Shown: in pieces, positions 1,305 through 50,283 of the stretch
Numbering within the stretch: position 1 is the stretch's first letter
Layout of the letters: every line of letters begins with the position of its first letter
Assembly (NCBI RefSeq): GCF_007995015.1
Contig: NZ_VORB01000006.1
Span: 124,001 to 188,000, forward strand
Source of the DNA: Luteibaculum oceani
GTDB taxonomy: Bacteria > Bacteroidota > Bacteroidia > Flavobacteriales_D > Luteibaculaceae
DNA: 64,000 nt
Direction of reading: 5' to 3'
Notes under the pieces: generated by a model
What the model was told of the DNA's origin: nothing
What the model saw: the letters and a program-made list of their open reading frames with translations, nothing else
Databases searched by the model: none
Program-made: the position numbers and the translations under genes

Positions 1305-1351
1305 CGTTTTCCGAGCGTTCTTGTTTAAAGCAAATTCTGTACCTTATAGGT

Positions 1352-1606
1352 ATGTTCCAAGTCTATATTCTTCAAAGTTCCAAATCCAAAAAGTATTACA
1401 TAGGATACACAGGAGATAGCCTAGAAAATCGTCTTTCCAAACACAATCGTCCTCACAAAGGGTACACCGCTCGACATCAACCTTGGGAATTAGTTTATCA
1501 CGAAGAATATTCCAATAAGACAGAAGCTATAATGCGGGAGAAGAAATTAAAAGGTTGGAAGACCGCTAAGCGTATTTCTGAGCTTATACAAAGTACTCTT
1601 GATTAA
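1352..1606 (+). CDS. GIY-YIG domain endonuclease-like protein (UPF0213 type)
   Basis: The 84-residue protein is a single GIY-YIG domain. The N-terminal VYILQSS..KYYIGYT carries the YIL/YIG pair, RLSKHN follows, and EAIMREKKLKGW near residues 58-69 carries the catalytic glutamate region. Length and layout match the small stand-alone UPF0213/YhbQ-like group, whose substrate is not known. A TACCTTAT box at 1338-1345 lies six bases before the ATG, so the mRNA may have almost no leader. The gene stands alone between the tRNA terminator and the large convergent secreted-protein gene. Confidence 0.9.
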   Translation: MFQVYILQSSKSKKYYIGYTGDSLENRLSKHNRPHKGYTARHQPWELVYHEEYSNKTEAIMREKKLKGWKTAKRISELIQSTLD

Positions 1607-1631
1607 AATACCCATACCTACCAAGTAACAC

Positions 1632-1654
1632 GGGTACAAGTTTGAATTGTACCC
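1632..1654. repeat. Perfect 8-bp inverted repeat between convergent genes
   Basis: GGGTACAA and TTGTACCC are separated by a 7-base loop. It sits between the ends of the GIY-YIG gene and the minus-strand giant gene. There is no T-run on either side, so it is a weak candidate for a terminator; it may stabilise RNA 3' ends. Confidence 0.5.
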
Positions 1655-1788
1655 TAGGCGTTGAACAAGTACTTAGAATGTTTTGTAAACTCGATTTTTT
1701 TCCAATGCAGAATTGAAACCATCCATTTGAATAAATCTGATTTTCACAAGAAGATTACATGGAGTAGGGAATTCTTTGAATGAAATGT

Positions 1789-4700
1789 TTACTCAATAAC
1801 CGTTACTGTACCGTAATAAGTTCTGTCTTCTTCTCCTTTGTGACCTTTTATACGAACCATAAAGGTGTAAGCGCCGATGGGTACCAATTCGCCAAGGTAG
1901 GTGCCGTTCCAACCTCGATCTGGATCTTGAGTTCGGAATATTTCCTCTCCCCAACGGTTATATATGCTAAAGTGTACAGCTCGGCCTTCTAACCCATTGT
2001 ATACGGGTTTAAACTCCTCGTTAGCTCCGTCGCCATTGGGTGTGAATGCATTGGGGATGGAGACTAGTACCTCGTCTCTTACATATACCCAATGGGTTAA
2101 GGTACCACTGCAATTTTCTACACCAGAATACACAATTTGAGAGATGTAATACCTTCCGGTGTCTTGACTGTTAAATTGAATAATAGGCTGTCGAAGTGAT
2201 GATAGATGCTCAGAATGATCCAAAAGGTAATCCCATTTTTCTGCACCCTGAGATTTGTCTAATATTCTCACCTCAGGATTAATTACAGTAGGATCTCCTT
2301 TTATTTCAAATCCTGCGATAGGATAGGGGTCTACTTGGAGGTAGGACTGTTTCATTATACTGGCACTACATCCCTTGGTGGTAGTTTGGGTTAAACGCAC
2401 ATCGTAGGATCCTGGTTGTTGTAGGTTGATATATAAAACATCCTCGTTGTCAAAAACCAGTCCACCTCCTATTTCCCAACTATTACTTTGTTGATTACTT
2501 AAGTCTGATATGATCCGAAGTTGAGTAATCAATGGTGTACAGGAGAGTCTATCATCTGCTGCGAAATCGGGTTGAGGATTTTGATGTACGGGAACCGAGG
2601 CGCTTCCGTTATTTTTATCTGACACGCAATTGTTGGCGTCTGTCACATTTATTAAAATGTATGAAGCATCTTTATTGGGTCTAACACATATTTTTAGGGT
2701 GTCCTCAGGTCTAGGGAGGTACCCCGTTTTTTCAGATCCCAATTCCATCGCATTTTCAAACTGGAAACTAAAAGGACCGTTCCCCTCAATCTTAAAATAA
2801 ATTAAGGTGGAATCTCCCTCACAAATTTCGGCACCCTTATCGAAAATGGTGGCTATAGGCAGTTCGTTTACCTGCAATAATGCCCTTTCGTAGATATCCT
2901 GACCACAAGCGTTTCCAGATTCATCGGAGTAAATGCTGTGCTCAATTCTTGTAAATACAAATGCACTGTCGGCTTTGGGGTAATAAGTAAATACGGAGGT
3001 GTCCTGGTTTAGCGCGTAGCTTTGTCCATTTTTATCGTACGCAGTAAATTGACTTCCAGAACCAGATGGAATTAGCCTTAAATTGACTGGATTGCCCGCA
3101 CAAATTCTATTGGTATCCAATGCTATATCCAAAGTGGGAAGATCTTTAACACTAACGGTTAAATTAGCTGGATTGCCAGCACTTCCTGCGCAAAGCTTTC
3201 TATTTCCAGTGCTCTGTACGATTTGACCAGAAACCTGGGAAATACTAAAGACATTGTTCCCTAAGTTCAAGTTGTTCTTGCTGATAAATAAATCATCTAT
3301 GTTTCCATCATACGATCTGATTAGACCAATGTTTGGGGTAATTTGAGCAAACACAGAATCGCTTCCAGAAAATTTAATTTTTGCCTTGCTTAAATTTTCG
3401 CCCAAGCAGACATTATAAGCTCCTGATGGGTCGGTTGAATTGGGGATAAATTCAGCTCTAGGTTCCTTGTGGATATTCACCCTTGCGCTATCCCCAACCC
3501 ATTTTCCAACACAGGTTTGCCCCGTATTGGTTACAAAATGGGGACTACTGGCATAATAGCTAATGGGAGTATGTTGGGTACCAATGGTGTTTTCTGCTAA
3601 GGCAATAGTCATTGTACCTTGAGCAATATTGCTAAAGAAGGTGCTGTCTGTTCTGCTGCTAATTATTTCGAAATCCGCATTTTGAGTTGTGGTAATCGAA
3701 TAGTCTATAACCACTTGCTCTCCATAACATAGTTCACTTTCTCTTTCGCTAATGGTTATACTTGGTAAAGCGCGCCATGCAATTGGGATACCCGGTTTGG
3801 TGTATAAGGGACACCTTTTACTTGATATATCGACTAATCCCGGATTATCTGAGTCCTCGTCCATTGCAAGCGGGCATATATAATAAGTCTGGTTGGTATC
3901 AATAATTCCTGCTGGGAAATCAGAGATAGCATACACTGGCGATTTACTCAGCGATCCACCAACCATAGTTTCTATGGGTTGATTGGGATCTATTGCCAAA
4001 ACAAATGACCAAGTATCGTTTCCATCGCCAACATAACCCATAGGGTCGCCATTGCCCTGAGTTCCTTCGAGCTGTGCCGAAGCGGCTTGGTCTGCGCAGA
4101 AATACTGCACCCCTGATACAGCCTTTAGGTTGGGAGCTTCGGTAGCACATGGGCAGGTATGTGAGCCAGATAAAGTTATTGGGTTACAATTTTTGTCATC
4201 GCTTGCTACAAAGCTTACCGGAACTCCGCTGGTGATATTCGATTTCAGGAAAGTACTATCAGGTATAGCGCTTCCATCCACCAGATAATTTCCAGAACCT
4301 TCTCTAATAGTTAAAAGGGCGGAATAAGTTTCGTTATCTGTAGCACAGGTGTATTGGTCTATGCTCGCGCTGATGCTGTCGTTAACCAGTACCTGGTACG
4401 GATCGGGTGCGGTTTTTATTCCAGCAGTACAGCCGTATTTATCAGCAACTTGAAAGTTGGAGAAATCTATAGTACCCGTCTGATATCCCGTTCTGAACAG
4501 GACTTCGGTTCCAGATATTGAGTTGTGATTGTACCCTAATTGATTTTCCAGATAACTGACATCAAAGGGGTTGTTTCCCTGTAGGTTATACTCAATGAAT
4601 ATGGAATCAGCCTCACAAATTTCGGGAGGGTAAACGCGAATGGTTCCCTCGGGAATTTTAGTCCAAAATACGGGTACACCCGGTGCTGTTTGGGTACAGA

Positions 4701-7113
4701 GGTTAGGCGCTTTTGCATCTGCGTGGCCAGTGCCGTCATCGTCGCCAACAATGGCCGAGATATAATAAACGCGATCGTACACCATTGGAGGCTGGAAAGC
4801 GAAGTTCGCCGAGTTAAGATTTTTCTGAAGAATGTTTCCAGGACTGGTGCCGGGATTGGTATGTAATACGTATGAAATGGCATCGTTTCCATCCATTACA
4901 TGATTGCCGCCATGCTGGGCAGTTGCCGTACCATCGCCACAAACAATAATAGTATCCGTAGGGTTAATCATGTCCCCAGGATCTGTAACGCAATTACATG
5001 CTTTGGAGAAAAATACGGTATCGTAAGGTTGGCAATTCAGTTCATCTTTTAAGACTAAATAATGGGTTCCACTATTTAAATTAAGGCTTGCAGCACTCCC
5101 AGTTTGATTAAAAGGGCCACCATCCACGCTATATTGGTAGGAAAAACGGTCACCTTCTCTAAATCTGAAATAGGCTATTATTCCAACATTATCACCATCG
5201 CAAACTACTGAGTCTACTATGCTAAATGCGGTTTTCTTATGACCAGAAAATTCTAATTGGTCCAGGGGAGCTTTGCAAAATGGCGCGCTATTGGAAACAA
5301 TGCTATCTGCTCTTAACCAGAGCGAAGCTGAGCTAGGAAGATTAAAGCTGTTTAATCCGTTGGCTAAACTTGCGTTTTGATAGGGATCTCCATTGCCAGT
5401 GAAGTAGGCCGTGTAATCATTTGCCACGCCATTAATCAAAACTTCAACTGTGTATTCTGTGCCGGGACAAACACTGTCTATTGGATTTAGTGTAAGCTCT
5501 GGACTTGGGTGGACTGTTAAATTAAGTTTTGCCGTATCAGGAGCACATTGTTCGGGTCCATCAGGAAGATAGATGAAAATTATTTCTCCATCTTCACCTT
5601 CGTAGGGGTTGTACAAGCCACTGTTAGAAAAGGAACCTGTTGCGGTATTGCTTTGAAGCAGTTCCCATCTACCGGGCCGTGGATGAGTAGTAAGTGAATT
5701 GTTAAGATCTAGATTAATTACTTCGTTACAGACTTCGAGTTCCATCTCTGTTCCTGCATCTGGAACTTCAGAAACTTCTACGATCATGGTTGCGGTATCG
5801 GCCGGACAAGAGGCCGTTGAAATGATGTAGTGGTACTTTCCTGGTGCGTGTATTTCTGGATTAAATGGGTTTTGGAAGGGAGTGCCATTTTGAAATACCC
5901 AATTTCCATTGTCATCCGGATTTCCGCTAAGCTCTGTAAACAAATCTACAGGCTCATCATTGCTGCAAATTTTCAAGGTTTTACCTATTCCGGGATTGTT
6001 TTTTCCAACTTCAATAGTGATCTGGTAGGTTTCTGTACACGTGGTATCACCTGGAACATCAACGGTTAGGGTGTATGTTGTGGTGGTGGGAGGGCTGGCT
6101 GTAGGATTTTTAATGTTTGGATTGCTTAATCCTATACTGGGTGTCCATTTATATGTATACGTTGGAGCGTCTGGTTGGTCTGATAAAAAGTCCAATTGAG
6201 CAAATTCACCATTACATATTTTGTTGGTGTCGGTGGTAGCAACTCCAATTATGGGAGTAGCAGCATCAAGAGTGATACGGTATAAGGATGGAACGGGGCA
6301 GGGGTCGGTTTGGTCGATGACCTCAAGAACATAAGTTCCGGGACCTAAATTGGTTGCCGTAGCTCCGTTGAGGCCGGGTCTTACAGTGGTAGTATCGCCT
6401 TCGTACCATGTATAGTCATATGGTCCGCCACCGGCTGGTGCCGTAAAAGTGATACTTCCATTTTTTGCACATGTGATTTCTTCATAGCTCACTTCTCCAG
6501 CCACTCGGGTAATTGATGATAAATTATCTAAGCTACAGTGCTGGCCTCCACGTGTAATGGAAACGGCGTAAAATCCAAACCAGGTATAGGCATCGTCGGG
6601 AACAAACTCTACGGTATGCCTTTGCCAGCCTGTTCCTAAATTATGGGTAACTCCAGGGTCGTTACTTTTCCAAAACAATTTGGTGGGTGTACAAGATGCG
6701 AACCCTGCTACTATTGCCATGTGGCCCGGCGTATAAGATCGAGAAGGATCTGACATTAAATCGAAAGAGAAGGTGTATTTTTTGCCGGGAACCAACGGGC
6801 AAGCCTCTCCATCCTGAATAAGCAGCTGCATAGCTCCTTCTCCCAGAGCAGTTCCTTCAACGGTTGTGCCGCCGGTGCTTCCGTCCCAAAATCCTAAATA
6901 GCGAGTTCCGTGTGAAGCGGGTTGGTTATTGTAAACACCAGGCTCCCAATCTGTAGTTCCATTGCAGTACACCCAGGCTACGGGTACACCTACTAACACT
7001 CCTGTACCCACCTCAAAACTTGGATTTTGAAACCGAATTTGCCCCATGCTATCCGTAAAGAGAATAAGGAGTAAACCTGAGATTAATATTTTATAGAATA
7101 TATGATTGATCAT
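1789..7113 (-). CDS. Giant secreted protein with T9SS type B (gliding motility-associated) C-terminal domain
   Basis: The 1774-residue protein has a signal peptide ending near residue 24 (FTDSMG-Q). An N-terminal jelly-roll, carbohydrate-binding or MAM-like domain covers roughly residues 25-205. A SprB-like repeat (CAKNGSITFTAP) and PKD/Ig-like repeats with WTPSIGLSNPNIKNPTA-type motifs follow. Two long related segments each open with a CNC/CPC cysteine pair and a GDGNDTWSFVL or DGNDAISYVL motif. The C-terminal ~90 residues carry AFTPNGDG, YNRWGEEIF and WNGTYLGE, the signature of the gliding motility-associated domain that directs export by T9SS and anchoring. It is presumably a cell-surface adhesin or structural protein with no enzymatic motif. 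It is divergent from the PNGase F-like gene. Confidence 0.92.
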   Translation of the reverse strand: MINHIFYKILISGLLLILFTDSMGQIRFQNPSFEVGTGVLVGVPVAWVYCNGTTDWEPGVYNNQPASHGTRYLGFWDGSTGGTTVEGTALGEGAMQLLIQDGEACPLVPGKKYTFSFDLMSDPSRSYTPGHMAIVAGFASCTPTKLFWKSNDPGVTHNLGTGWQRHTVEFVPDDAYTWFGFYAVSITRGGQHCSLDNLSSITRVAGEVSYEEITCAKNGSITFTAPAGGGPYDYTWYEGDTTTVRPGLNGATATNLGPGTYVLEVIDQTDPCPVPSLYRITLDAATPIIGVATTDTNKICNGEFAQLDFLSDQPDAPTYTYKWTPSIGLSNPNIKNPTASPPTTTTYTLTVDVPGDTTCTETYQITIEVGKNNPGIGKTLKICSNDEPVDLFTELSGNPDDNGNWVFQNGTPFQNPFNPEIHAPGKYHYIISTASCPADTATMIVEVSEVPDAGTEMELEVCNEVINLDLNNSLTTHPRPGRWELLQSNTATGSFSNSGLYNPYEGEDGEIIFIYLPDGPEQCAPDTAKLNLTVHPSPELTLNPIDSVCPGTEYTVEVLINGVANDYTAYFTGNGDPYQNASLANGLNSFNLPSSASLWLRADSIVSNSAPFCKAPLDQLEFSGHKKTAFSIVDSVVCDGDNVGIIAYFRFREGDRFSYQYSVDGGPFNQTGSAASLNLNSGTHYLVLKDELNCQPYDTVFFSKACNCVTDPGDMINPTDTIIVCGDGTATAQHGGNHVMDGNDAISYVLHTNPGTSPGNILQKNLNSANFAFQPPMVYDRVYYISAIVGDDDGTGHADAKAPNLCTQTAPGVPVFWTKIPEGTIRVYPPEICEADSIFIEYNLQGNNPFDVSYLENQLGYNHNSISGTEVLFRTGYQTGTIDFSNFQVADKYGCTAGIKTAPDPYQVLVNDSISASIDQYTCATDNETYSALLTIREGSGNYLVDGSAIPDSTFLKSNITSGVPVSFVASDDKNCNPITLSGSHTCPCATEAPNLKAVSGVQYFCADQAASAQLEGTQGNGDPMGYVGDGNDTWSFVLAIDPNQPIETMVGGSLSKSPVYAISDFPAGIIDTNQTYYICPLAMDEDSDNPGLVDISSKRCPLYTKPGIPIAWRALPSITISERESELCYGEQVVIDYSITTTQNADFEIISSRTDSTFFSNIAQGTMTIALAENTIGTQHTPISYYASSPHFVTNTGQTCVGKWVGDSARVNIHKEPRAEFIPNSTDPSGAYNVCLGENLSKAKIKFSGSDSVFAQITPNIGLIRSYDGNIDDLFISKNNLNLGNNVFSISQVSGQIVQSTGNRKLCAGSAGNPANLTVSVKDLPTLDIALDTNRICAGNPVNLRLIPSGSGSQFTAYDKNGQSYALNQDTSVFTYYPKADSAFVFTRIEHSIYSDESGNACGQDIYERALLQVNELPIATIFDKGAEICEGDSTLIYFKIEGNGPFSFQFENAMELGSEKTGYLPRPEDTLKICVRPNKDASYILINVTDANNCVSDKNNGSASVPVHQNPQPDFAADDRLSCTPLITQLRIISDLSNQQSNSWEIGGGLVFDNEDVLYINLQQPGSYDVRLTQTTTKGCSASIMKQSYLQVDPYPIAGFEIKGDPTVINPEVRILDKSQGAEKWDYLLDHSEHLSSLRQPIIQFNSQDTGRYYISQIVYSGVENCSGTLTHWVYVRDEVLVSIPNAFTPNGDGANEEFKPVYNGLEGRAVHFSIYNRWGEEIFRTQDPDRGWNGTYLGELVPIGAYTFMVRIKGHKGEEDRTYYGTVTVIE

Positions 7114-7367: not shown

Positions 7368-10300
7368 ATGAGAACCACCTTTATACTCTTGTTCTGCATT
7401 ATGCAGTCGATAATGTTTGCGCAACAAGACACCATAGTTGTGCAGACCTTTACTTTCGATAGTACCTCCAGGAGGGCGGAATTTACCTTTCCCGATAACG
7501 ATCCAAACTCCTACGAAAAGGTTTTGATGCATTACCGCATGCGCTGTAGAAACGGTGAAGTAAATACCACGGGTGGTAACAATGTAGCTTGTGGAGAATG
7601 GGATTACAGTTGTAATACGTACATAACCGATAGCACTCAATTCGATTCGCTAAAAGCAACTCATCCCACCCATATCGTGAGTGGATTTTCTGGCAGCGCA
7701 CTTAGTTATAACACAACACCTTCTTATGATTTAATTCAGAGGGTTCTTACGCAAACTACCTATACCAACGTAAATAGCGAAAGTGAGTACGGACTAAACC
7801 TAGGACCGGATACGGTTCTGGTGGTATCTCCAGACCAAACAGCGCATAGATTCCAGGTGTTATATACGGCTGCCGAGTTAAGCAGCACGGGTATGGGAGC
7901 TGGAAATATTACTGGAATTCAAATTCCTTTGCAGGGAACAGGTCTTTTGAAAAATCTTAAAATCAAAGTAAAAAGCACCAGTCTTACCGAAATCAATCAG
8001 TTGGAAACACAAGGCTTTCAAACTGTTTTTTACAACCATCTGGCTTTAGATCAAGGGCTTGGATTTGCCAAGTTCTCTACTCCGTTTAACTGGAATGGAC
8101 AAAGCGACCTATTATTGGAAATTTCCTTTGACTACAACGGTTCTTTTGGAACTCCATGGTTGGGAGCTAATAATACTTCGAAAAGAGCAATTGCCAGATT
8201 GAGTAATGGTACTCCAGAATTTAATGGTAGTGGATATTTAAAATTGGAAGAAGCAGATTTATTAGGAATCTCAGATGAAATAAGTGTTGGGTTCTGGATG
8301 AAAGGAGATATTAATGCTCTTGGAACACTTAATTCTTCAGCTTTCGAAGGTGTAGATGGATCCAACAGAAGACAAGTTAACAGTCACCTTCCTTGGTCGA
8401 ATAGCAATGTTTATTGGGATTGTGGAAACGATGGTTCAGGATACGATAGAGTGAATCAAAACGTGGAGGCCACCACATATACCGAAACCTGGAATCACTG
8501 GTTTTTCACTAAAAATGCCAGAACGGGTATCATGGGCATTTACCACAACGGTTCTTTGGTAAAGCAAAACACCGGAAAGAATAAGCTTATAGACCTGGTA
8601 AAACTTGCTATTGGAAGTTCTTATCCTAATGCAGCAGGAAATACCAATCCTTTTTATGGCGCACTAGATAATTTCACTATTTACAATAAGCGTTTGAGTA
8701 CCGCTGAAATTGCAGCTCATATGAACGGAGATTTGAGCGTTTTGGATAACCTAGATGGTAATGTTGTCTTCGATTTAAACTCCTTCGCTGATGGTGGGGT
8801 AGATGAAGGACCTTTGAACATTAGTGTTAGTGAGGTAGACGATGTTACGGTCACCAAAGTTTTTGGTGATCAATTAGATAAAGGTTTTAAGCGAATTGGA
8901 GTGCCTAATATAGGTTGGGTGCAAGGTGACTATACCCTTTCTAATACTCAGGTTACTGTTTATGATACTATTTATCATGCGGGTAAATTGGTGAAGGAAT
9001 ATGAGATAGTTGACAACCAGCCTGTTGTTGCCAACCAATATTTTGCCTGGACCCGAGATTTGGGCTTGATTTATGACGATGCAGGAGAAGTAATTGATGG
9101 TTTTGATATTTCCTTGGAAAACAACTTAAATATTGGAGTTCTCGATTACTTTAGAAAGTCTCCAGCCAAATTCGAAATCATGTCTTTTGTAACCCCTTAT
9201 GGTATAAACCTTGATTTGGGAATGGAAGGTAAAATGTGGGAATTCGATGTTACCGATTTTGCCCCTGTTCTAAGAGGGAAAAAGGTGGTTTCTCTTGAGC
9301 GTGGTGGACAGAATCAGGAGGAAATGGATATCAAATTCATTTTCATAAAAGGAACCCCAGAAAGAAACATTATAAGTCTTAAGCAGCTTTGGCCCGTTAA
9401 CCAAACGAGCTATGGAAATATAGCAGCAGACAATCAGTATCAACCGCTTGACGTACCCATTTCAGCAGACGCGAAATATGGTAAAATCCGCAGTGTTATC
9501 ACCGGGCATGGTCAGGAAGGTGAGTTTATTTCGAGACAGCACTATGTGGATATTAATGCTGGACAAAAACGTTTTAGTTGGAATGCATGGACAGAGTGTT
9601 CTGAAAACCCGATTTACCCACAGGGAGGAACTTGGTTAAACGATAGAGCAGGATGGTGCCCCGGAGCTCCCTCCGATATCAACGAGTTTGACGTTAGCCA
9701 ATACCTTTCACCAGGAAGCATATTGCAGGTAGATTACGGAATGGCAAGCGCAACGGGTGATTCTCGATACATTGTTAATCACCAGCTGGTAACCTATGGC
9801 GATTACAATTTTTCTACCGATGCAGCTATCGAGTATGTTATTAAACCATCCCAGCGTACGGAATTTGATAGGTTTAACATGGCTTGTACCCAACCCGAAG
9901 TGCTGATAAAGAATAAGGGGGGTGATGTAATAAGTAGCCTAGAACTTCAATACTGGGTAAACCCCAATAATAAAAAGACCTACACCTGGTCGGGTAGCAT
10001 TCAACCGTCGGCATACCAGAAGGTGAACTTACCAATAGAAGAACTAGATTTTTGGACCGATCAGGACGCAGAAAATGTTTTTTATGTTGAGGTAACTGCG
10101 GTGAATGGAGGCGCTGATCAGTATGCTCCAAACAACAGTTACAGATCTCCTTATACCCCTGTACCGGTGTATGAAAAAGGGTTAACCCTTAATTACAGAA
10201 CCAATACCAGAGGATGGGAATCATCTTATCGGATTTTAGATATGGCTGGAAATGTAGTAACCCAGAAAAGTGGGTTTACAAGTAACACCACTTATTCTGA

Positions 10301-10781
10301 TGATCTAGAATTGCCAAATGGTTGTTTCCGGTTGGAATTTATGGATGACGGGGACGACGGATTATATTATTGGTATTACGCAGCTATCGGACAAGATAGA
10401 GGCCGTGGTTTCTTGAGACTGAAGAATGGTTTCGGAACTACTATTAAGGCTTTCGAAGAGGAGTTTGGTGGTACCGTAACCCATGAGTTTATTAATGCAG
10501 GAGCGGTGGGAATTAGCAAACAAACGAGAGAGTTTGCTGTAAACGTATATCCAAACCCTACAGAAGATGGTATTATCAATGTGTACAACGGCGGCGGATT
10601 GGAATCTGGCGACCACATTTTAGTAAGAGATGCCTCGGGAAGAATAGTATTTAATCTCGAACTAGGAAGTATTGAAAAAGTACTACAATTGGATTTAGGA
10701 TCCTTAAATACTGGAGTTTACTTCATGGATTTCAATAGAAATGGGGTAAGCCTAACCATTAAAAAGATTAGCGTATTATAA
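7368..10781 (+). CDS. Secreted PNGase F-like glycoamidase with inserted LamG domain and T9SS type A sorting domain
   Basis: The 1137-residue protein has a signal peptide (to about residue 18). Residues ~25-90 match the start of Elizabethkingia PNGase F, including CGEWD, where D79 aligns with catalytic D60. A LamG/concanavalin-like domain occupies ~285-455. PNGase F homology resumes near 603: E644 aligns with E118, E719 (GEFISRQHYVDIN) with E206, and DRAGWCPG at 759-766 is identical. The alignment was made by eye against the remembered PNGase F sequence. All three key acids are therefore kept, suggesting removal of N-linked glycans from glycoproteins outside the cell. The last ~75 residues (YPNPTEDG..., ending KKISVL) form a type A T9SS sorting domain. 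An alternative is that the fold is kept for binding only, but the conserved acids argue against it. Confidence 0.88.
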   Translation: MRTTFILLFCIMQSIMFAQQDTIVVQTFTFDSTSRRAEFTFPDNDPNSYEKVLMHYRMRCRNGEVNTTGGNNVACGEWDYSCNTYITDSTQFDSLKATHPTHIVSGFSGSALSYNTTPSYDLIQRVLTQTTYTNVNSESEYGLNLGPDTVLVVSPDQTAHRFQVLYTAAELSSTGMGAGNITGIQIPLQGTGLLKNLKIKVKSTSLTEINQLETQGFQTVFYNHLALDQGLGFAKFSTPFNWNGQSDLLLEISFDYNGSFGTPWLGANNTSKRAIARLSNGTPEFNGSGYLKLEEADLLGISDEISVGFWMKGDINALGTLNSSAFEGVDGSNRRQVNSHLPWSNSNVYWDCGNDGSGYDRVNQNVEATTYTETWNHWFFTKNARTGIMGIYHNGSLVKQNTGKNKLIDLVKLAIGSSYPNAAGNTNPFYGALDNFTIYNKRLSTAEIAAHMNGDLSVLDNLDGNVVFDLNSFADGGVDEGPLNISVSEVDDVTVTKVFGDQLDKGFKRIGVPNIGWVQGDYTLSNTQVTVYDTIYHAGKLVKEYEIVDNQPVVANQYFAWTRDLGLIYDDAGEVIDGFDISLENNLNIGVLDYFRKSPAKFEIMSFVTPYGINLDLGMEGKMWEFDVTDFAPVLRGKKVVSLERGGQNQEEMDIKFIFIKGTPERNIISLKQLWPVNQTSYGNIAADNQYQPLDVPISADAKYGKIRSVITGHGQEGEFISRQHYVDINAGQKRFSWNAWTECSENPIYPQGGTWLNDRAGWCPGAPSDINEFDVSQYLSPGSILQVDYGMASATGDSRYIVNHQLVTYGDYNFSTDAAIEYVIKPSQRTEFDRFNMACTQPEVLIKNKGGDVISSLELQYWVNPNNKKTYTWSGSIQPSAYQKVNLPIEELDFWTDQDAENVFYVEVTAVNGGADQYAPNNSYRSPYTPVPVYEKGLTLNYRTNTRGWESSYRILDMAGNVVTQKSGFTSNTTYSDDLELPNGCFRLEFMDDGDDGLYYWYYAAIGQDRGRGFLRLKNGFGTTIKAFEEEFGGTVTHEFINAGAVGISKQTREFAVNVYPNPTEDGIINVYNGGGLESGDHILVRDASGRIVFNLELGSIEKVLQLDLGSLNTGVYFMDFNRNGVSLTIKKISVL

Positions 10782-18177: not shown

Positions 18178-21100
18178 ATGTTGGTTAGGGATATTTGTTT
18201 GTACTTAGTGTTAGTTGTTGGTTATATCGGAAACACCCCGCTTATCCAGGCACAATTAAATGTGACAGCCAGTAATAATGCTGCTCAAATGGCTCAATTA
18301 TTAGCTGGACAAGGTGTTGTGGTTAAGAACGCAACCCTTAATTGTGCTGGAACCGCGGCAGGAACCTTCGATGGCGGAGTAAATGCTCTTAATTTTACCT
18401 TAGACGAAGGTATCGTTTTGGGTACGGGGAATGTTACCAATGCTAATGCTGGAGGACTGCTTTGCTTGGGAACTGACCACGGTAGACCAGGATATGCTCC
18501 TCTTAATTCAATTGCCAATGCAACAACCCAAGATGCGTGTATCCTAGAATTTGATGTAGAGGTTACGACAAGTACCTTGGAGTTTAAGTATGTCTTTGGC
18601 TCGGATGAATACCCAGAATATGTAGGATCATCTTTCAATGATGCTTTTGGATTCTATATCAGTGGCCCCGGTATAGCGGGGATTCAAAATATAGGTGTTT
18701 TACCTGGTGGTGGAGGTGCTCCAATCACTATTAACACCGTAAATAACGGAGATACTGATATTGGACCCTGCATTAATTGTGAGTTCTATCGGGCAGATAT
18801 GTCCTCGCAAACTCAATTAGACGGAACCACTAGTGTTTTAACGGCAACAGCCAGTGTTATCCCTTGTGAGACCTATCATTTTGTTTTGGCCATTGCCGAT
18901 GCAAGCGATGGGTGTTGGGATTCTTCCGTTTTTCTGGAGAAATCAAGTTTGGTTTCCGTTGGAGTGGATATGACAGAACCTGTTGTTTCCGGAAATATTG
19001 GACCAGGAAGAATTTATGAGAACTGCGATTCTGCTGTCTACACCTTCCATCTTCCGAATCCTGTTTTAAGTGACTATGTTTTTGAGGTAGCCATAAAAGG
19101 AACCGCTCAAAACGGTGTGGACTACCGTTTTTTAAAAGACTCCATGGTGATAAAAGCTGGGGAGCAGTCGGCATCTTACACCATCCTTCCACTAACAGAT
19201 TCTATTGTAGATCCGGGAGAAACGGTTGAAATATGTATTCTCGATCCTTGTACTAAAGCTGAACTTTCTTGTGAAACGGTAACCATTGAGGAATTAGAAG
19301 CTGAAATAACGGAGGAGCAAAATATCTGCTATGGCGATTCTGTGCAGCTTCAGGTTTCCGAAAATGTTAATTACAACTACAGTTGGTCTCCCGGAAATTC
19401 GCTTAGCTGCACAGATTGTCATAACCCAATTGCGTTTCCAAATGACACCACTACTTATTTTGTAACGTTTAGTGATCAGGGGTGTAGCTTGGTACGGGAG
19501 GTAACGGTTAATGTTGCGGCGCCCAGCTTACCAACATTGGCAGATACCACGGCCTGTATTGGTGCTACGAAATCTGTAGATGTTAGTACCCCTGGATTTG
19601 ATAATTATCTGTGGACACCCGAATATGGGATTTCCAGTTCCTCCTCGCCTTCAGTAACTTTTACCGTTCTCGATAGCGCAGTGAGTTATATGGTAATTGC
19701 TACAAATGACCTAGGTTGTGAGCTGACCGAAGAAATTACCATTACCCCTTTCCCTGCAGTAGAAGCGACACTGTTTCCCAAAGATGTGCTTTGCTTCGGT
19801 GATGCTTCGGGAGAAATAGATGTTGTGGTACATTCATCTTCTCCTATCGACAGTTTTAAATGGCAGGATGGAAGTTTCGCAGCAGACCGCGTCGATCTTT
19901 TTGCTGGGGATTATGAGGTGGAACTAGTGGACATAAACGGTTGTAAGTTAATCCTCGATACCGTTGTTAATCAGCCTGATACAGCCCTTTTTGTGGAAGC
20001 TCTTCAATTGGTTCCGTCTCGTTGTGGTGGTCCTTCAGGTAGGGCCGAAGGTGTAGCTTTTGGAGGTACCGAACCCTACCAGTTTCAGTGGTCGCAGGGT
20101 GGAGATCAAAGCATTTCAGAATCACTTCTTCCAGGTGTATATGAGTTAACTGTTATCGATGCTAATGGTTGTACAGCAAGCGATACGGTAGAGATCAAAG
20201 CTGATTTTTCTGATCAAAAAGATGCCGAAATTATTCCCTTTGGACCTTTTTGTGCAGGTTCTGAGACCTTCCAAATTCAGACGCTAATGACTGGTGGTGT
20301 TTTCTCTGGGCCAGGTGTGGATAGCTGGGGCTTATTCGATCCTAGTGCTGCTGGAGAGGGCGTACATGCCATTGTGCATGAAATTGTTGATGGGTACTGT
20401 AGTGATAGAGATACCTTTTTCGTTGAAGTAAGTTCCAGTTTTCAAGCGGATATTAATCCTATAAATCCACCCTGTGCACTAGAGGAAATGGTGCAACTTA
20501 GTTCTGTTACCAACGGTGGCTTGTATTGGGGGACAGGAATATTGGATAGTGCGTTTGCCCGTTTTTATCCAAGTCATGCAGGGCCCGGAAAACACTGGAT
20601 TTATCACCTGGTACAAGGAGAGTGTGGTGAGTTGGATTCAATGGAAATTGAGGTGATCGCCCCGGATACTGGTGAAATTGTTAACCTGCCTAGTTTTTGC
20701 CCAGCAGGAGATGAAGCCCCATTAGTAGCAACACCCAATGGTGGAACCTGGAGTGGATTAGGGGTCAATCAACAGGTGATGTTCAATCCAAGAAATTTAG
20801 GAAGTGGGCGCTATCAAGTGCAGTATATCCCTGCGGCTGCCTGCCGCATACCAGTTGACACCTTTGTAACTGTGGTGGATACCCTGAAATTGACCTCTGA
20901 TGTTGATTCTACCACTTGCTTTTTGGGTTCCGATGGAAGTGTTACGCTTGAAATTATGGGCGGACTCGCTCCATTTTCATTCGATTGGGATCCAGCTATA
21001 ACTTCAAGTACCTCGAGTGCTTCAAATCTTGGGGCCGGAAGTTATACCGTCCAGGTTATCGATAGCCTCGGATGTAATGCGCAGCATGCTTTTTTTGTTC

Positions 21101-23076
21101 ATCAGCCAGAGGAACTTAAAATTACTAATGTTCAGATTAGCAATGCATCCTGTTCAGGACTTTGCGATGGTGAAGCCAAGATTGAGGTTCAGGGGGGAAC
21201 GGCTCCTTTTACCTACAGCATTCAACCAAGTTTAGGAACAACTTCTTTTGATGGGGTAGCGACTTATTCAGGCCTTTGTGGTGGAAATACCTTTGTTGTT
21301 TTCATATCCGATGCCAATGGGTGTACTGTAGATACAGCCATCACAATTAGTGAGCCTACAGCAATTTCAGTTATAGACAGTATTGTTCCTGCAAATTGTA
21401 ACCAAAGCAACGGAGCTATTTATTTAAACACAATATCGGGTGGAAGTACACCGTATTCATTTTTGTGGAGTAATAATGCATTAGACACCCATTTGGTAAA
21501 CGTGGTACCAGGTAGCTACTCCCTAGATATTACCGATGCCAACGGTTGTACTTACTCTTTCCCCTACAACATTGATAACATAGCCGGACCTAGCACTAAT
21601 CTTTTTATGGATTCGATCTCTTGTAGTGGGGGATCCGATGGTAAAGCATGGGTTCAAATAGTAGGGGGGACAAAACCTTTTGTTGTGCTTTGGAGCAATG
21701 GCTCATCTAAAGATACGGTTAACAATTTGTCAGCTGGATTAATAGAGGTAAGTGTTGTAGATTCTGCTGGGTGTGAAGCCCTAGACAGTATACAGATTTT
21801 GGCTCCCACTCCGGTAATATTATCTGATATTGTCGATACCTTGCTTTGTACCAATGAAATTTATCAGGGGAGTTTTATAGTCACGGGAGGTAATGGGACA
21901 AATAATTACCGCTTCGAGATAAATGGTATAACGCAAAGCACGGCTAATTTCAGTTTGGCAGATAGCGGTTTGTACCTGGTAAGGGCTTTCGATAATAAGA
22001 ATTGTCCCTCGAATACTATAGACTTTCAGGTTGCCAAAAGAGGAGTACTGCAAGTTTCCATACCTAAACAAGACAGCATTTGTCCGGGAGATAAAGCATG
22101 GGTAAGTGCAGATGTGCAGGGTGGAAAACAACCCTACCAGCTTAATTGGAATTCGGGCGAAACCCAAATTGGCTGGATGTATCAATCGAGCCCCACGGAT
22201 AGCGGTTCCGCAACAACCAAGTTGTGGGTAGTGGATGCATGTAACGATGTGGATAGCGCGGTAAGTGCCATAGATTTTTACCCTAGGCCAATAATTCAGC
22301 CTCTTATTTTACCCAATTCGGGGTGTGAACCTCTAACTAGCAACTTCAGTTTGCCATTAAATACCTTTGGCGAGGTTAAGTGGTTTGTAAATAGGAAGTT
22401 GGTGAGTAGGGAGAACGTATTTAACCACGAATTTGTATCTGCAGGTTCTTATGATATCGGTATTGAGGTTATTAGCAATCAAGGATGTGAAAACTCCCTG
22501 TTTTTAGAAAAGGAAATTGTGGTTTATCCTAACCCTTATGCGGATATTTCTATTAATCCCAGTCGTTTGAGCTTAATAAATAACGAGGCATTTTTAGGGC
22601 TTTCTAGCACTTATAAATTGGCAAAAGCTTTTTGGAGCATTTCAAATGAGCTGGGCGATACCATCATTACTACTTCTGGATTACAGCCCTTTGTAGTTTT
22701 TCCAAAAATTAAAGGGGATTACGCCGTAAGCGCAAGCTTCGAAACGGAATTTGGTTGCTTGGGTCAAAGCCACGCTTTTATTACGCTTGCCAGCGAAGAT
22801 ATCCTGTATATACCTACCGCTTTTACTCCTAATGGAGACGGGGTAAACGATGCTTTTGCCATAGAGGTTGTGGGAGTAGAACCTTCTGCTTTTAGTGTAC
22901 ATATTTTCGATCGATGGGGAGAGGAATTATTCAGTAGCAAGGATCCATTTTTTAAGTGGGATGGTAGCTACCTGGGGGAACTATGTAAGGGGGATGTTTA
23001 TGTTTGGGCTATTCGCTATAAAACACTAGATGGAAAACAAAAGAACCTAAGTGGAAGGGTTACCCTGGTTCGTTAA
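18178..23076 (+). CDS. Giant adhesin-like protein with choice-of-anchor L, SprB repeats and T9SS type B domain
   Basis: The 1632-residue protein has a signal peptide (cleavage near residue 25). Residues ~35-260 form a choice-of-anchor L domain (FKYVFGSDEYPEYVGSSFND, ISGPG, HFVLAIADASDGCWDSSVFL). A Calx-beta-like segment follows (GVDYRFLKDSMVI, ~280-365). From ~370 to 1400 there are many PKD-like and SprB repeats with the core C-x-G-x-S/D-G ... GG-x-x-P-Y/F ... Y-x-V/L-x-x-x-D-x-x-G-C. The end carries AFTPNGDGVNDAF, FDRWGEELF and WDGSYLGE, the gliding motility-associated sorting domain. SprB-like repeats act in surface adhesion and gliding. Its stop overlaps the stop of the convergent glycosyltransferase gene by four bases. 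Confidence 0.93.
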   Translation: MLVRDICLYLVLVVGYIGNTPLIQAQLNVTASNNAAQMAQLLAGQGVVVKNATLNCAGTAAGTFDGGVNALNFTLDEGIVLGTGNVTNANAGGLLCLGTDHGRPGYAPLNSIANATTQDACILEFDVEVTTSTLEFKYVFGSDEYPEYVGSSFNDAFGFYISGPGIAGIQNIGVLPGGGGAPITINTVNNGDTDIGPCINCEFYRADMSSQTQLDGTTSVLTATASVIPCETYHFVLAIADASDGCWDSSVFLEKSSLVSVGVDMTEPVVSGNIGPGRIYENCDSAVYTFHLPNPVLSDYVFEVAIKGTAQNGVDYRFLKDSMVIKAGEQSASYTILPLTDSIVDPGETVEICILDPCTKAELSCETVTIEELEAEITEEQNICYGDSVQLQVSENVNYNYSWSPGNSLSCTDCHNPIAFPNDTTTYFVTFSDQGCSLVREVTVNVAAPSLPTLADTTACIGATKSVDVSTPGFDNYLWTPEYGISSSSSPSVTFTVLDSAVSYMVIATNDLGCELTEEITITPFPAVEATLFPKDVLCFGDASGEIDVVVHSSSPIDSFKWQDGSFAADRVDLFAGDYEVELVDINGCKLILDTVVNQPDTALFVEALQLVPSRCGGPSGRAEGVAFGGTEPYQFQWSQGGDQSISESLLPGVYELTVIDANGCTASDTVEIKADFSDQKDAEIIPFGPFCAGSETFQIQTLMTGGVFSGPGVDSWGLFDPSAAGEGVHAIVHEIVDGYCSDRDTFFVEVSSSFQADINPINPPCALEEMVQLSSVTNGGLYWGTGILDSAFARFYPSHAGPGKHWIYHLVQGECGELDSMEIEVIAPDTGEIVNLPSFCPAGDEAPLVATPNGGTWSGLGVNQQVMFNPRNLGSGRYQVQYIPAAACRIPVDTFVTVVDTLKLTSDVDSTTCFLGSDGSVTLEIMGGLAPFSFDWDPAITSSTSSASNLGAGSYTVQVIDSLGCNAQHAFFVHQPEELKITNVQISNASCSGLCDGEAKIEVQGGTAPFTYSIQPSLGTTSFDGVATYSGLCGGNTFVVFISDANGCTVDTAITISEPTAISVIDSIVPANCNQSNGAIYLNTISGGSTPYSFLWSNNALDTHLVNVVPGSYSLDITDANGCTYSFPYNIDNIAGPSTNLFMDSISCSGGSDGKAWVQIVGGTKPFVVLWSNGSSKDTVNNLSAGLIEVSVVDSAGCEALDSIQILAPTPVILSDIVDTLLCTNEIYQGSFIVTGGNGTNNYRFEINGITQSTANFSLADSGLYLVRAFDNKNCPSNTIDFQVAKRGVLQVSIPKQDSICPGDKAWVSADVQGGKQPYQLNWNSGETQIGWMYQSSPTDSGSATTKLWVVDACNDVDSAVSAIDFYPRPIIQPLILPNSGCEPLTSNFSLPLNTFGEVKWFVNRKLVSRENVFNHEFVSAGSYDIGIEVISNQGCENSLFLEKEIVVYPNPYADISINPSRLSLINNEAFLGLSSTYKLAKAFWSISNELGDTIITTSGLQPFVVFPKIKGDYAVSASFETEFGCLGQSHAFITLASEDILYIPTAFTPNGDGVNDAFAIEVVGVEPSAFSVHIFDRWGEELFSSKDPFFKWDGSYLGELCKGDVYVWAIRYKTLDGKQKNLSGRVTLVR

Positions 23077-47373: not shown

Positions 47374-50283
47374 TTATTTGTTCAGGTAATGGGTGGTATT
47401 TTGTTGGTTTCCGTTCTTAAATTGAATACTGCTCAAAATAATTTCGGCCGATAAGTTATGTACAGGTATGGCGAATTTGGTTGTGCTTATTTGTTTTGTC
47501 AGGATTTCTTTTCCGTCAACCGAGTACAAGCGGACGCTTTCGGGTTGTGAATTCTCAGATAATTCGAAATGCAATGTTCCGTTATGGAACCACGTTTTAA
47601 TAGAGTTTTCAATTTGGTTAGTTGACACAATTTCAGTGGTGGGCGAGGTGTACCTTCTGAAGGTTAAGAAGAATCTGTTTTTAGACTTATGGCTATCCTC
47701 AAAAAATATGGAGGCGTCTTCTCTCCAGAGGTTCCAGCTTTCACCTGTTTCAGTATCCAGTAGGTAAGGCTCTAATCCACCCATTTTGTCGAACTGCGAT
47801 TTTTCTATGTGTATTTGGTAATTACCAGTATGGGGGGTAGCAATGGAAAGGGGGATTTTTACTTTTGGATTTACCATTCCTACTGTTTGTATGCCCAGCA
47901 CATGCCCTTCGTAGTTTAAAGTTTGAATGTGGAAACTCCCTGCATCTGAGCCTAGAGCATCCCAGCCCCAATCGTACAATGGTGTGCAGTTTTCGGCTAT
48001 GGCAAATAGGGTGGTATAGCGCTTATCTTGGTCGATAATTTGTAAATGGAATTTAGCTAAAATGGGGTTTGCCCTACCGCTTTTAAACTCACTATTAACT
48101 CCACCTCGCATACTGTTTTTAAAACTTACCGTTTGCGACGTAGTCCCTGTAAGGCATACATAAAATCCCTGTCCCGATGCGATGTAGGTGTTAGCTAAGG
48201 TTTGAGAATTATCCGTGGATCCGGCAACGGTAGCTCCTGCATTATTTATGGTTATCTGTTGGTTTTCCTCGGTGTAAGAGTAATTGGGATTGTGATTAAA
48301 TAGGTTGATAAATCCATCGAGAACAGCACTATTTTCCGTTAGAAAATCTGCTGCATTAATGGCACTAGGATAGGGGTTTCCTAGTGCGTTGTAATTGCCT
48401 GTGGTTCCATTGGTTTCAGTGGCAATGGTTATGGTTCCATTGTTTATTTCTCCCGAAAAGGTATGCGTATTTACTCCAGTTAAGGCATACCCCTTTCCAA
48501 CAGTTAAATATTCGCTTCCGCTTACCCATGACCAATCTGAGGTGGAAGTTCCAGGGGCATTTAATTCGTATTGCCTGCTTGCCCCTATGTCAGACATTTG
48601 CTCCGAAACCACCGGAGTAGACCAAAAATTGTAAAGTCCACTAGCCTGACCATCGGGTTTGTTTCTGGTGATATTAAAGGTGCCAGAATTACTAAGTGTA
48701 CTTCCGGTAGCTTGTACAATGGCTCCATCGTCGGCGACATTAAAGATTCCGGTATTGGATAGGTTTCCAACCATATTTAGGGCCTTATTAGAGGCTATAT
48801 AAACTGTTCCGTTATTGGTGAAGTTATTGGAATGAACAAATTGACTATAACCCGTTTGAGCTTGGATGTTGCCCAGTGTAAAAGTGTTTCCAGCGTCAAT
48901 TGTAATGCCTGGAAAAATACCCGCGCCAGTGTGGTTGGGGACATTCAGGGTGGTGGTATCACCGCCAGTAAAAAGGATAGAAGGAGTGTTGCCACTATCA
49001 AAAATGGTGTTGTCGTATGCTAGGTTATAGGTTAAGCTACCTCTAACTTTATAGGATCCAGCAAAGGTGAACTCGTGGTCTTCCTCAAAAAAGTCATCTC
49101 CTGTATCAAAAGTTACGTTGTAGTAGTTTGCAATGGGTACATCAAAATTGTAGGAAAATGTAGGCTTGTAAATTATGGTCGATCCCGTGTAAAGCGAATC
49201 GAACCTTACTCCTGGGAAATCTGCTGGGTCATAGGTGTCTGGACCAAAATTATCTTCATCTAAAACATACACTTCCCATGTAGCATTTTCCTTTACAATA
49301 AGCTCAAAGGAATAATTTATGTTGTCGTCTTGTACAGTAAAAGTGACACCGCTATCAATGATGAAGTATGAATTGTCACCCTCAATAAATAGATCGCTCC
49401 ATGTACTTGAGCCTAGGGTAACATCACGGTCGATTATAAAATGCTGGTTGTCGCCAACAAACTCTCCGAAATTGTTATTGGTTGGAGTTTCGCTAATGGG
49501 GGTGCCGTCTGAAAATGGTGTCCAGCTTTCTTCATCCGTTATATCTGTTTCTCCTGTATTTAGGTAAAAAGCCTCGTCAAAAAAGGTGATATGGATATCA
49601 TCTATAGCTAAGCCGTGCGAAGTAGCGTTATTATTAGGGTTAGGGTATTGCCATTTAAAGATAATTTGTTCGCCATCTGCAAGCCCATCGGGTAGTTGGA
49701 TAAGGTAGGTTTCGGTAGTAGCATTTGCATTCCCGTCAAGAGCTCTCGGGTTACAAGAGAGCGTACCGCATCCTACAGAGGACACAAAGTCTAAAACATT
49801 AATATCGCTGAATGAGGGGCTAGTTAAATCGGTGATATTGTTTCCAATGGCATAGGAAAAGTCTATTTTTTGCGATCCATTGGTAGCGCCAACTCTCCAT
49901 TGTTCTCCCTGGTAGCTTACGTATATTTTGTAAAGGGTTTTGCCGGTGTTATTCTCAAATAACCAGCCAAATACATAATTCGAAAATTGATCGTCAATAC
50001 AGCCTAAAGACCGGTCGCCGTCACCCGTTGATCCATAGCTATGATAGCTTGTAGTGGTGCTAGATCCATCAGAGCTGATATTACTGCTTTCTTCAGAGCT
50101 GTTGTTATAAATTAACCAGCCTTCTGCTAATCCAGAGAAATCTCCAGAACCACTGCTGGGTAAGCCATTAAAATCTTCGGTGTGAGTGGCTCCAACAGTA
50201 GTGATACTTTTTTGTCCGAAAACGGATGGACCTATGATAATCCATCCAAGAATGGCAAGGTAAAGGTTGAAGGATTGGTTCAT
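47374..50283 (-). CDS. Large secreted protein with diverged T9SS-type C-terminus (969 residues)
   Basis: A signal peptide (to ~23) is followed by a jelly-roll-like N-terminal domain (HTEDFNGLPSSGSGDFSGL, ATSHGLAIDDIHITFF; to ~230). A beta-helix or autotransporter-like run of NNGTVYIASNKALNMVGNL-type repeats covers about 430-560. A C-terminal region (~560-870) has FWSTPV, GKGYALTG, NYNALGNPYPSAINAADFL and SFKNSMRGG and is shared with the 1479-residue protein. The last 80 residues look like a degraded type A sorting domain (SVRLYSVDGKEI), but end in an unusual polar tail. Probable cell-surface or exported structural protein; no enzyme motif seen. Confidence 0.85.
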   Translation of the reverse strand: MNQSFNLYLAILGWIIIGPSVFGQKSITTVGATHTEDFNGLPSSGSGDFSGLAEGWLIYNNSSEESSNISSDGSSTTTSYHSYGSTGDGDRSLGCIDDQFSNYVFGWLFENNTGKTLYKIYVSYQGEQWRVGATNGSQKIDFSYAIGNNITDLTSPSFSDINVLDFVSSVGCGTLSCNPRALDGNANATTETYLIQLPDGLADGEQIIFKWQYPNPNNNATSHGLAIDDIHITFFDEAFYLNTGETDITDEESWTPFSDGTPISETPTNNNFGEFVGDNQHFIIDRDVTLGSSTWSDLFIEGDNSYFIIDSGVTFTVQDDNINYSFELIVKENATWEVYVLDEDNFGPDTYDPADFPGVRFDSLYTGSTIIYKPTFSYNFDVPIANYYNVTFDTGDDFFEEDHEFTFAGSYKVRGSLTYNLAYDNTIFDSGNTPSILFTGGDTTTLNVPNHTGAGIFPGITIDAGNTFTLGNIQAQTGYSQFVHSNNFTNNGTVYIASNKALNMVGNLSNTGIFNVADDGAIVQATGSTLSNSGTFNITRNKPDGQASGLYNFWSTPVVSEQMSDIGASRQYELNAPGTSTSDWSWVSGSEYLTVGKGYALTGVNTHTFSGEINNGTITIATETNGTTGNYNALGNPYPSAINAADFLTENSAVLDGFINLFNHNPNYSYTEENQQITINNAGATVAGSTDNSQTLANTYIASGQGFYVCLTGTTSQTVSFKNSMRGGVNSEFKSGRANPILAKFHLQIIDQDKRYTTLFAIAENCTPLYDWGWDALGSDAGSFHIQTLNYEGHVLGIQTVGMVNPKVKIPLSIATPHTGNYQIHIEKSQFDKMGGLEPYLLDTETGESWNLWREDASIFFEDSHKSKNRFFLTFRRYTSPTTEIVSTNQIENSIKTWFHNGTLHFELSENSQPESVRLYSVDGKEILTKQISTTKFAIPVHNLSAEIILSSIQFKNGNQQNTTHYLNK

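What the first reader, a model, noticed from the sequence alone, without database searches (positions are those of the whole stretch)
7368..10781. PNGase F homologue split by a ~500-residue insertion with LamG, yet with all three catalytic acids kept
D79, E644 and E719 align with D60, E118 and E206 of Elizabethkingia PNGase F, and DRAGWCPG is identical. In PNGase F the first two acids are 58 residues apart; here they are 565 apart, with a LamG-like domain in between. A T9SS sorting domain sends the protein outside. This suggests an extracellular glycoprotein deglycosylase whose binding module is built into the catalytic domain instead of appended.
Basis: partly seen in the sequence, partly recalled or inferred. 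Interest (0 to 1): 0.6.

Follow-up and report, generated by a model that had tools for sequence, protein, structure and literature searches.

The report
PNGase F relative with built-in lectin-like arm
A secreted bacterial enzyme related to PNGase F, which cuts sugar chains off glycoproteins, carries a lectin-like module built into a loop of its catalytic domain; the same design is shared by a whole clade of Bacteroidota enzymes, none of which has been tested as far as I could find.

Summary
Confirmed, with one correction. The 1,137-aa ORF at 7368-10781 is a PNGase F-superfamily protein with a T9SS export signal. An AlphaFold2 model (mean pLDDT 86) superposes its two PNGase halves on PNGase F as one domain (270 residues, 2.8 Å, Z 26.5), with about 505 residues looped out of one beta-hairpin. 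The insert is more than LamG: it holds a beta-arm, a jelly-roll module (about 143-285) and a LamG/pentraxin-fold module (about 280-505). Two catalytic acids are solid: D79 and E719 are invariant in 65 full-length relatives, as is H714. The third, E644, is not: Glu in only 32 of 65, and a family profile aligns PNGase F E118 with Gly646 instead. E118 is Gly in PNGase F-II anyway. The architecture belongs to one clade (100/100 support), found in about 70 of 99 same-order genomes. Relatives with no insert or about 105-residue inserts at the same loop suggest nested growth: arm first, jelly roll plus LamG later. Likely role: surface or secreted glycoprotein deglycosylase with a built-in substrate-binding arm. 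Activity and ligand are untested, and no GH18, GH20, GH38 or GH92 was found in this genome. A new variant of a known kind.

The parts
7368..7421 (+). Signal peptide (residues 1-18, cleavage after ...FA inferred by eye)
   Evidence: Sequence; helix 2-17 in model. No signal-peptide predictor was available.
7425..7637 (+). PNGase N-terminal jelly roll, first part (residues 20-90)
   Evidence: Structural superposition on PNGase F; mean pairwise identity 0.52 in family
7602..7604 (+). D79 = PNGase F D60, in motif C75-G-E-W-D-Y80
   Evidence: invariant in 65/65
7638..7793 (+). Outgoing part of the inserted beta-arm (residues 91-142)
   Evidence: Long strands 81-100 and 120-142; aligns with the ~105-residue inserts of L124-L127 and L130
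7794..8222 (+). Inserted jelly-roll/beta-sandwich module (residues 143-285)
   Evidence: Own AF2 model pLDDT 83, pTM 0.79; weak fold matches incl. CBM of carbohydrate esterase FjoAcXE Z 7.4; module recurs in other T9SS proteins
8205..8882 (+). Inserted LamG/pentraxin-fold module (structural extent 280-505; Pfam 286-449)
   Evidence: PAPP-A LamG Z 22.8; pentraxins Z 20-22
8883..9161 (+). Returning part of the inserted beta-arm (residues 506-598)
   Evidence: Long strands 516-536 and 591-608; aligns with the ~105-residue inserts
9162..9812 (+). Rest of PNGase domain (residues 599-815), includes PF09113
9297..9299 (+). E644, proposed = PNGase F E118; not conserved, alignment ambiguous
9318..9320 (+). 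E651, invariant acid in the same hairpin, role unknown
   Evidence: 65/65
9507..9509 (+). H714, at the position of PNGase F W191; His in most characterised PNGases
9522..9524 (+). E719 = PNGase F E206
   Evidence: invariant in 65/65
9642..9665 (+). DRAGWCPG motif (759-766), identical to PNGase F
9813..10532 (+). C-terminal beta-domains (816-1055), no Pfam hit; shared with insertion-free relatives L114, L120, L121
10545..10772 (+). T9SS type A sorting domain (1060-1135)

Best explanation
A T9SS-exported peptide:N-glycosidase of the PNGase F superfamily that hydrolyses the glycosylasparagine bond of exogenous eukaryotic N-glycoproteins, using D79 and E719 as catalytic pair with H714 on the GlcNAc. 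A beta-hairpin of its first jelly roll has grown into an arm that carries a jelly-roll module and a LamG/pentraxin-fold module; these hold the glycoprotein or glycan (or orient the enzyme) while the intact double-jelly-roll core cuts. Shown: ORF, fold of the core in the model, invariant D/E/H, insert anatomy, clade-wide conservation, T9SS signal. Inferred: amidase activity, the substrate, and the binding role of the insert. The insert most likely grew stepwise, arm first and jelly roll plus LamG later.
For: Model superposes on PNGase F, PNGase F-II, Ngly2 and Bacteroides PNGases over 266-283 residues spanning both halves, Z 23-26.5. Profile E 1.2e-23 to PNGase F. D79, E719, H714 invariant in 65/65; the equivalent D and E are essential in zebrafish Ngly2 (D421A, E555A inactive; PMC12753239), and W78-D79-Y80 plus His plus Glu match the conserved PNGase active-site pattern (PMC12381499). 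LamG fold Z 22 to PAPP-A and pentraxins. PNGase halves are more conserved (0.51-0.52) than the insert (0.26-0.34). The insert sits at one site: 521-546 residues in full forms, 123-132 in intermediates, 20-26 in bare forms; full forms are one clade, 100/100. Sorting domain and SprA present.
Against: No activity data. The genome (99.9% complete) has no hit to GH92, GH20, GH18 or GH38, so the released glycan may not be food for this organism, although 60 of 70 other genomes with the full form do carry GH92. The gene is not in a glycan-utilisation cluster. Pfam N-glycanase_N does not hit. E118 is not firmly matched.
Confidence: 0.72

Rival explanations
1. The double-jelly-roll core is PNGase-like but works on a different amide or glycan linkage, or is mainly an adhesin, with the insert being the functional part.
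For: No GH18/20/38/92 found in this genome; the core is only about 25-28% identical to PNGase F; a natural homologue (L027) has lost D79 and E719 yet keeps the insert, so the scaffold can serve without catalysis; the related PHM enzymes share the fold but not the chemistry (PMC8812541).
Against: D79/E719/H714 invariant in 65/65 and the PNGase halves are the best conserved part of the protein; L027 is an exception on a long branch.
Confidence: 0.2
2. The insert is a spacer or orientation device for a surface-attached enzyme, not a substrate-binding module (compatible with PNGase activity of the core).
For: Length of the D79-T609 stretch is nearly constant (521-546) while the insert sequence is weakly conserved; removing the appended NBL module of PNGase F-II changed neither activity nor specificity (PMC9522356).
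Against: LamG has a fold widely used for carbohydrate or protein binding and the jelly-roll module has weak CBM-like matches; LamG was independently appended to other PNGases in the same order.
Confidence: 0.3
3. Two genes or a chimeric assembly: LamG and PNGase joined by error.
For: None beyond the unusual architecture.
Against: The same architecture occurs without stops in dozens of independent genomes with 30-43% identity.
Confidence: 0.01

Closest known systems
PNGase F (Elizabethkingia meningoseptica, PDB 1pnf)
   Same: Double jelly-roll fold (Z about 26, 270 residues), D60/E206 equivalents, DRAGWCPG, TPY and GTP motifs
   Different: No insert (about 22 residues between D60 and the TPY motif), W191 where the window has H714, E118 not firmly matched, no T9SS domain or extra modules
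PNGase F-II / Phocaeicola (Bacteroides) massiliensis PNGase (4r4x, 7zgn)
   Same: PNGase core superposes, Z 24; no firmly conserved Glu at the E118 position (Gly in F-II, PMC9522356)
   Different: Accessory NBL module is appended at the N terminus, not inserted
PNGaseL, PNGaseDo and other enzymes of PMC12381499
   Same: Active-site pattern aromatic-D-aromatic/positive plus His and Glu; T9SS signals in PNGaseL and PNGaseDo; accessory beta modules
   Different: Accessory modules are described as N- or C-terminal to the catalytic domain, none inside it
Zebrafish Ngly2 acid PNGase (9lwg)
   Same: Core superposes, Z 25.1; catalytic Asp421/Glu555 (PMC12753239)
   Different: Protease-associated and thioredoxin-like modules are N-terminal; lysosomal
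N-terminal LamG-PNGase proteins of the same order (L116-L119, L122)
   Same: LamG plus PNGase, mostly with T9SS domain
   Different: LamG appended upstream, hairpin loop short (20-21 residues), separate branch of the tree
Ruminococcus gnavus NanH sialidase (inserted I-domain)
   Same: A domain inserted into a glycan-acting catalytic domain (PMC4747158)
   Different: Unrelated catalytic fold and reaction; insert of unknown function

Membership tests
PNGase F superfamily (PF09112 + PF09113, IPR015197) | C-terminal jelly roll PF09113 above curated cut-off | tested here: met
   45.4 bits vs cut-off 25
PNGase F superfamily (PF09112 + PF09113, IPR015197) | N-terminal jelly roll joined with the C-terminal one into the double jelly-roll core | tested here: met
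   Model aligns to PNGase F residues 4-305 over 270 residues at 2.8 Å. The Pfam HMM PF09112 itself does not hit, nor does it hit insertion-free relatives L114, L120, L121
PNGase F superfamily (PF09112 + PF09113, IPR015197) | Catalytic Asp in aromatic-D-aromatic/positive motif | tested here: met
   W78-D79-Y80, D 65/65
PNGase F superfamily (PF09112 + PF09113, IPR015197) | Catalytic Glu with His (Trp in PNGase F) on the neighbouring loop | tested here: met
   E719 and H714, 65/65 each
PNGase F type I (E118-bearing) | Acid at the E118 position | tested here: inconclusive
   Pairwise alignment gives E644, profile alignment gives Gly646; E644 conserved in 32/65 only
PNGase F superfamily (PF09112 + PF09113, IPR015197) | Hydrolysis of the GlcNAc-Asn amide of N-glycoproteins | not testable with these tools
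   Needs an enzyme assay
LamG (Laminin_G_3, concanavalin-like) | LamG fold and HMM match | tested here: met
   56.2 bits vs 27.6; Z 22.8 to PAPP-A LamG, 20-22 to pentraxins
LamG (Laminin_G_3, concanavalin-like) | Glycan or protein ligand | not testable with these tools
   Needs binding assay
T9SS type A cargo | C-terminal sorting domain | tested here: met
   TIGR04183 40.6 bits vs 23
T9SS type A cargo | T9SS in the genome | tested here: met
   SprA_N in a 2400-aa frame, 583.7 bits; other components not tested

The most novel reading that the evidence does not exclude
A so far undescribed clade of Bacteroidota PNGases whose catalytic domain grew a nested binding arm in two steps, in which the inserted LamG reaches over the active site and makes the enzyme act on intact, folded glycoproteins (possibly including core alpha-1,3-fucosylated ones, given Gly at the E118 position in the profile alignment).
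Probability: 0.3. Interest if true: 0.6.

Novelty: new variant of a known kind. Interest (0 to 1): 0.45.

Why it matters
PNGases are workhorse reagents and glycoprotein-degrading tools of gut and marine bacteria; all characterised ones I could find carry accessory modules at their ends. A clade carried by about 70% of sampled genomes of one order, with the binding module inside the catalytic domain and with surviving intermediate forms, is a test case for how modular enzymes internalise a binding domain. It is also a source of candidates that may act on native glycoproteins.

Tried and rejected
First genome-contig scan with the single protein found nothing because the chosen peptides were not conserved; repeated with an alignment. 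The claim of three conserved acids was tested and cut to two. A first tree used the wrong TPY motif in three rows (gap 416) and was redone. A glycan-utilisation gene cluster was looked for around the gene and not found; GH18, GH20, GH38, GH92 were not found in the genome. Co-occurrence of the full form with GH92 in the order (60/70 vs 16/29, Fisher p 0.003) is largely a family-level pattern and was not used as evidence for function. The jelly-roll module has no clear solved relative: best Z 8.3 and no Foldseek hit under E 0.001. No paper describing LamG inside a PNGase was found; subscription papers and supplements were not searchable.

Full report
Observation. The ORF at 7368-10781 (+) encodes 1137 residues. 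Pfam finds LamG (286-449), N-glycanase_C (682-798) and a T9SS sorting domain (1060-1135), all above cut-off. Against solved structures by sequence, PNGase F matches 601-797 at E 2.6e-10, plus a short, by itself non-significant stretch around CGEWD. With a 65-member profile the match is E 1.2e-23.

The third acid. E644 lines up with E118 only in the pairwise alignment. Across 65 full-length relatives it is Glu in 32, otherwise mainly Thr or Ser, and the family profile puts E118 on Gly646, which is Gly in 56/65. [quoted passage not shown] In Ngly2, Asp421 and Glu555 were mutated as the catalytic residues, with complete loss of activity (PMC12753239). So two catalytic acids are kept, the third is unproven, and this does not harm the case for a PNGase. 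The six enzymes of PMC12381499 share an aromatic-D-aromatic/positive motif, a His (Trp in PNGase F) and the Glu; the window protein has W78-D79-Y80, H714 and E719. An invariant E651 in the same hairpin as E644 has no assigned role.

Fold. AlphaFold2 on the 65-sequence alignment: mean pLDDT 86.4, pTM 0.66. The core aligns with PNGase F over 270 residues from model 20 to 813 at 2.8 Å, Z 26.5, and with Ngly2 (25.1), PNGase F-II (24.1) and Bacteroides enzymes (about 23-24); residues 280-505 align with the LamG domain of PAPP-A (22.8) and pentraxins (20-22). The two halves therefore fold together with the insert looped out, in the prediction.

The insert. 529 residues separate D79 from T609 (521-546 across 65 relatives), against 20-26 in insertion-free relatives. 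It starts in the hairpin after the CGEWD strand. It contains an extended arm (long strands 81-100, 120-142, 516-536, 591-608), a jelly-roll module of about 143-285 (own model pLDDT 83, pTM 0.79; weak CBM-like matches) that recurs in other large T9SS-type proteins, and LamG.

Origin. Relatives of 770-890 aa have inserts at the same loop with 123-132 residues between D and TPY. In alignment these match the outer parts of the window's insert, about 86-132 and 515-600, and lack the jelly roll and LamG. In a tree of the PNGase core all full forms are one clade (100/100), whose sister holds four intermediates plus one bare form (joint split 100/98); four other intermediates fall elsewhere. The tree is midpoint-rooted. 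The simplest reading is that the arm came first and the jelly roll plus LamG were nested in it once. Whether the arm arose once or more is open.

Distribution. Full forms occur in about 70 of 99 same-order genomes, counted, and more sparsely in the phylum (30 of 296 genomes match at E 1e-30, shorter forms included). In the same order other PNGases carry LamG appended at the N terminus with a short hairpin loop.

Context. The gene is flanked by a T9SS CHU_C protein, a truncated globin and a Na+/H+ antiporter, with no glycan cluster. The genome has SprA but no detected GH18, GH20, GH38 or GH92, while 76 of 100 order members have GH92. Deglycosylation may here serve proteolysis of glycoproteins rather than glycan catabolism; this is inference.

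Verdict. A PNGase F-superfamily member by the fold and active-site features tested; enzymatic activity untested. The internal, nested arm with a lectin-like module is a new variant of a known kind. Domain insertion into glycan-acting enzymes has precedents such as the I-domain of R. gnavus NanH (PMC4747158).

Noticed in passing
L027 (G050:C471), ORF 1349-4816: Full-length homologue with the catalytic motif lost (CGEWDY to CGEFAL, E719 to Ile) but LamG insert and T9SS domain intact: a natural pseudoenzyme.
   Followed up: partly
L123 (G044:C5): The PNGase gene is broken into two adjacent ORFs (719 and 453 aa), within the PNGase part after the insert.
   Followed up: no
window 7368-10781 / G000 genome: Genome with a PNGase but no detected GH18, GH20, GH38 or GH92, unlike most of its order for GH92.
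   Followed up: partly
window residue E651 (9318-9320): Glu invariant in 65/65 in the hairpin that bears the E118 position; no role assigned.
   Followed up: no
window 7794-8222; G000:C4:225841-226137; G000:C6:202384-202695: Jelly-roll module without Pfam entry, shared with several large proteins of the order.
   Followed up: partly
window 1789-7113 (-) and 18178-23076 (+): Large CHU_C/SprB-repeat cell-surface proteins near the PNGase gene.
   Followed up: no
window 47374-50283 (-) and 50540-54979 (-): Two long ORFs (969 and 1479 aa) without any Pfam hit at E 0.001.
   Followed up: no
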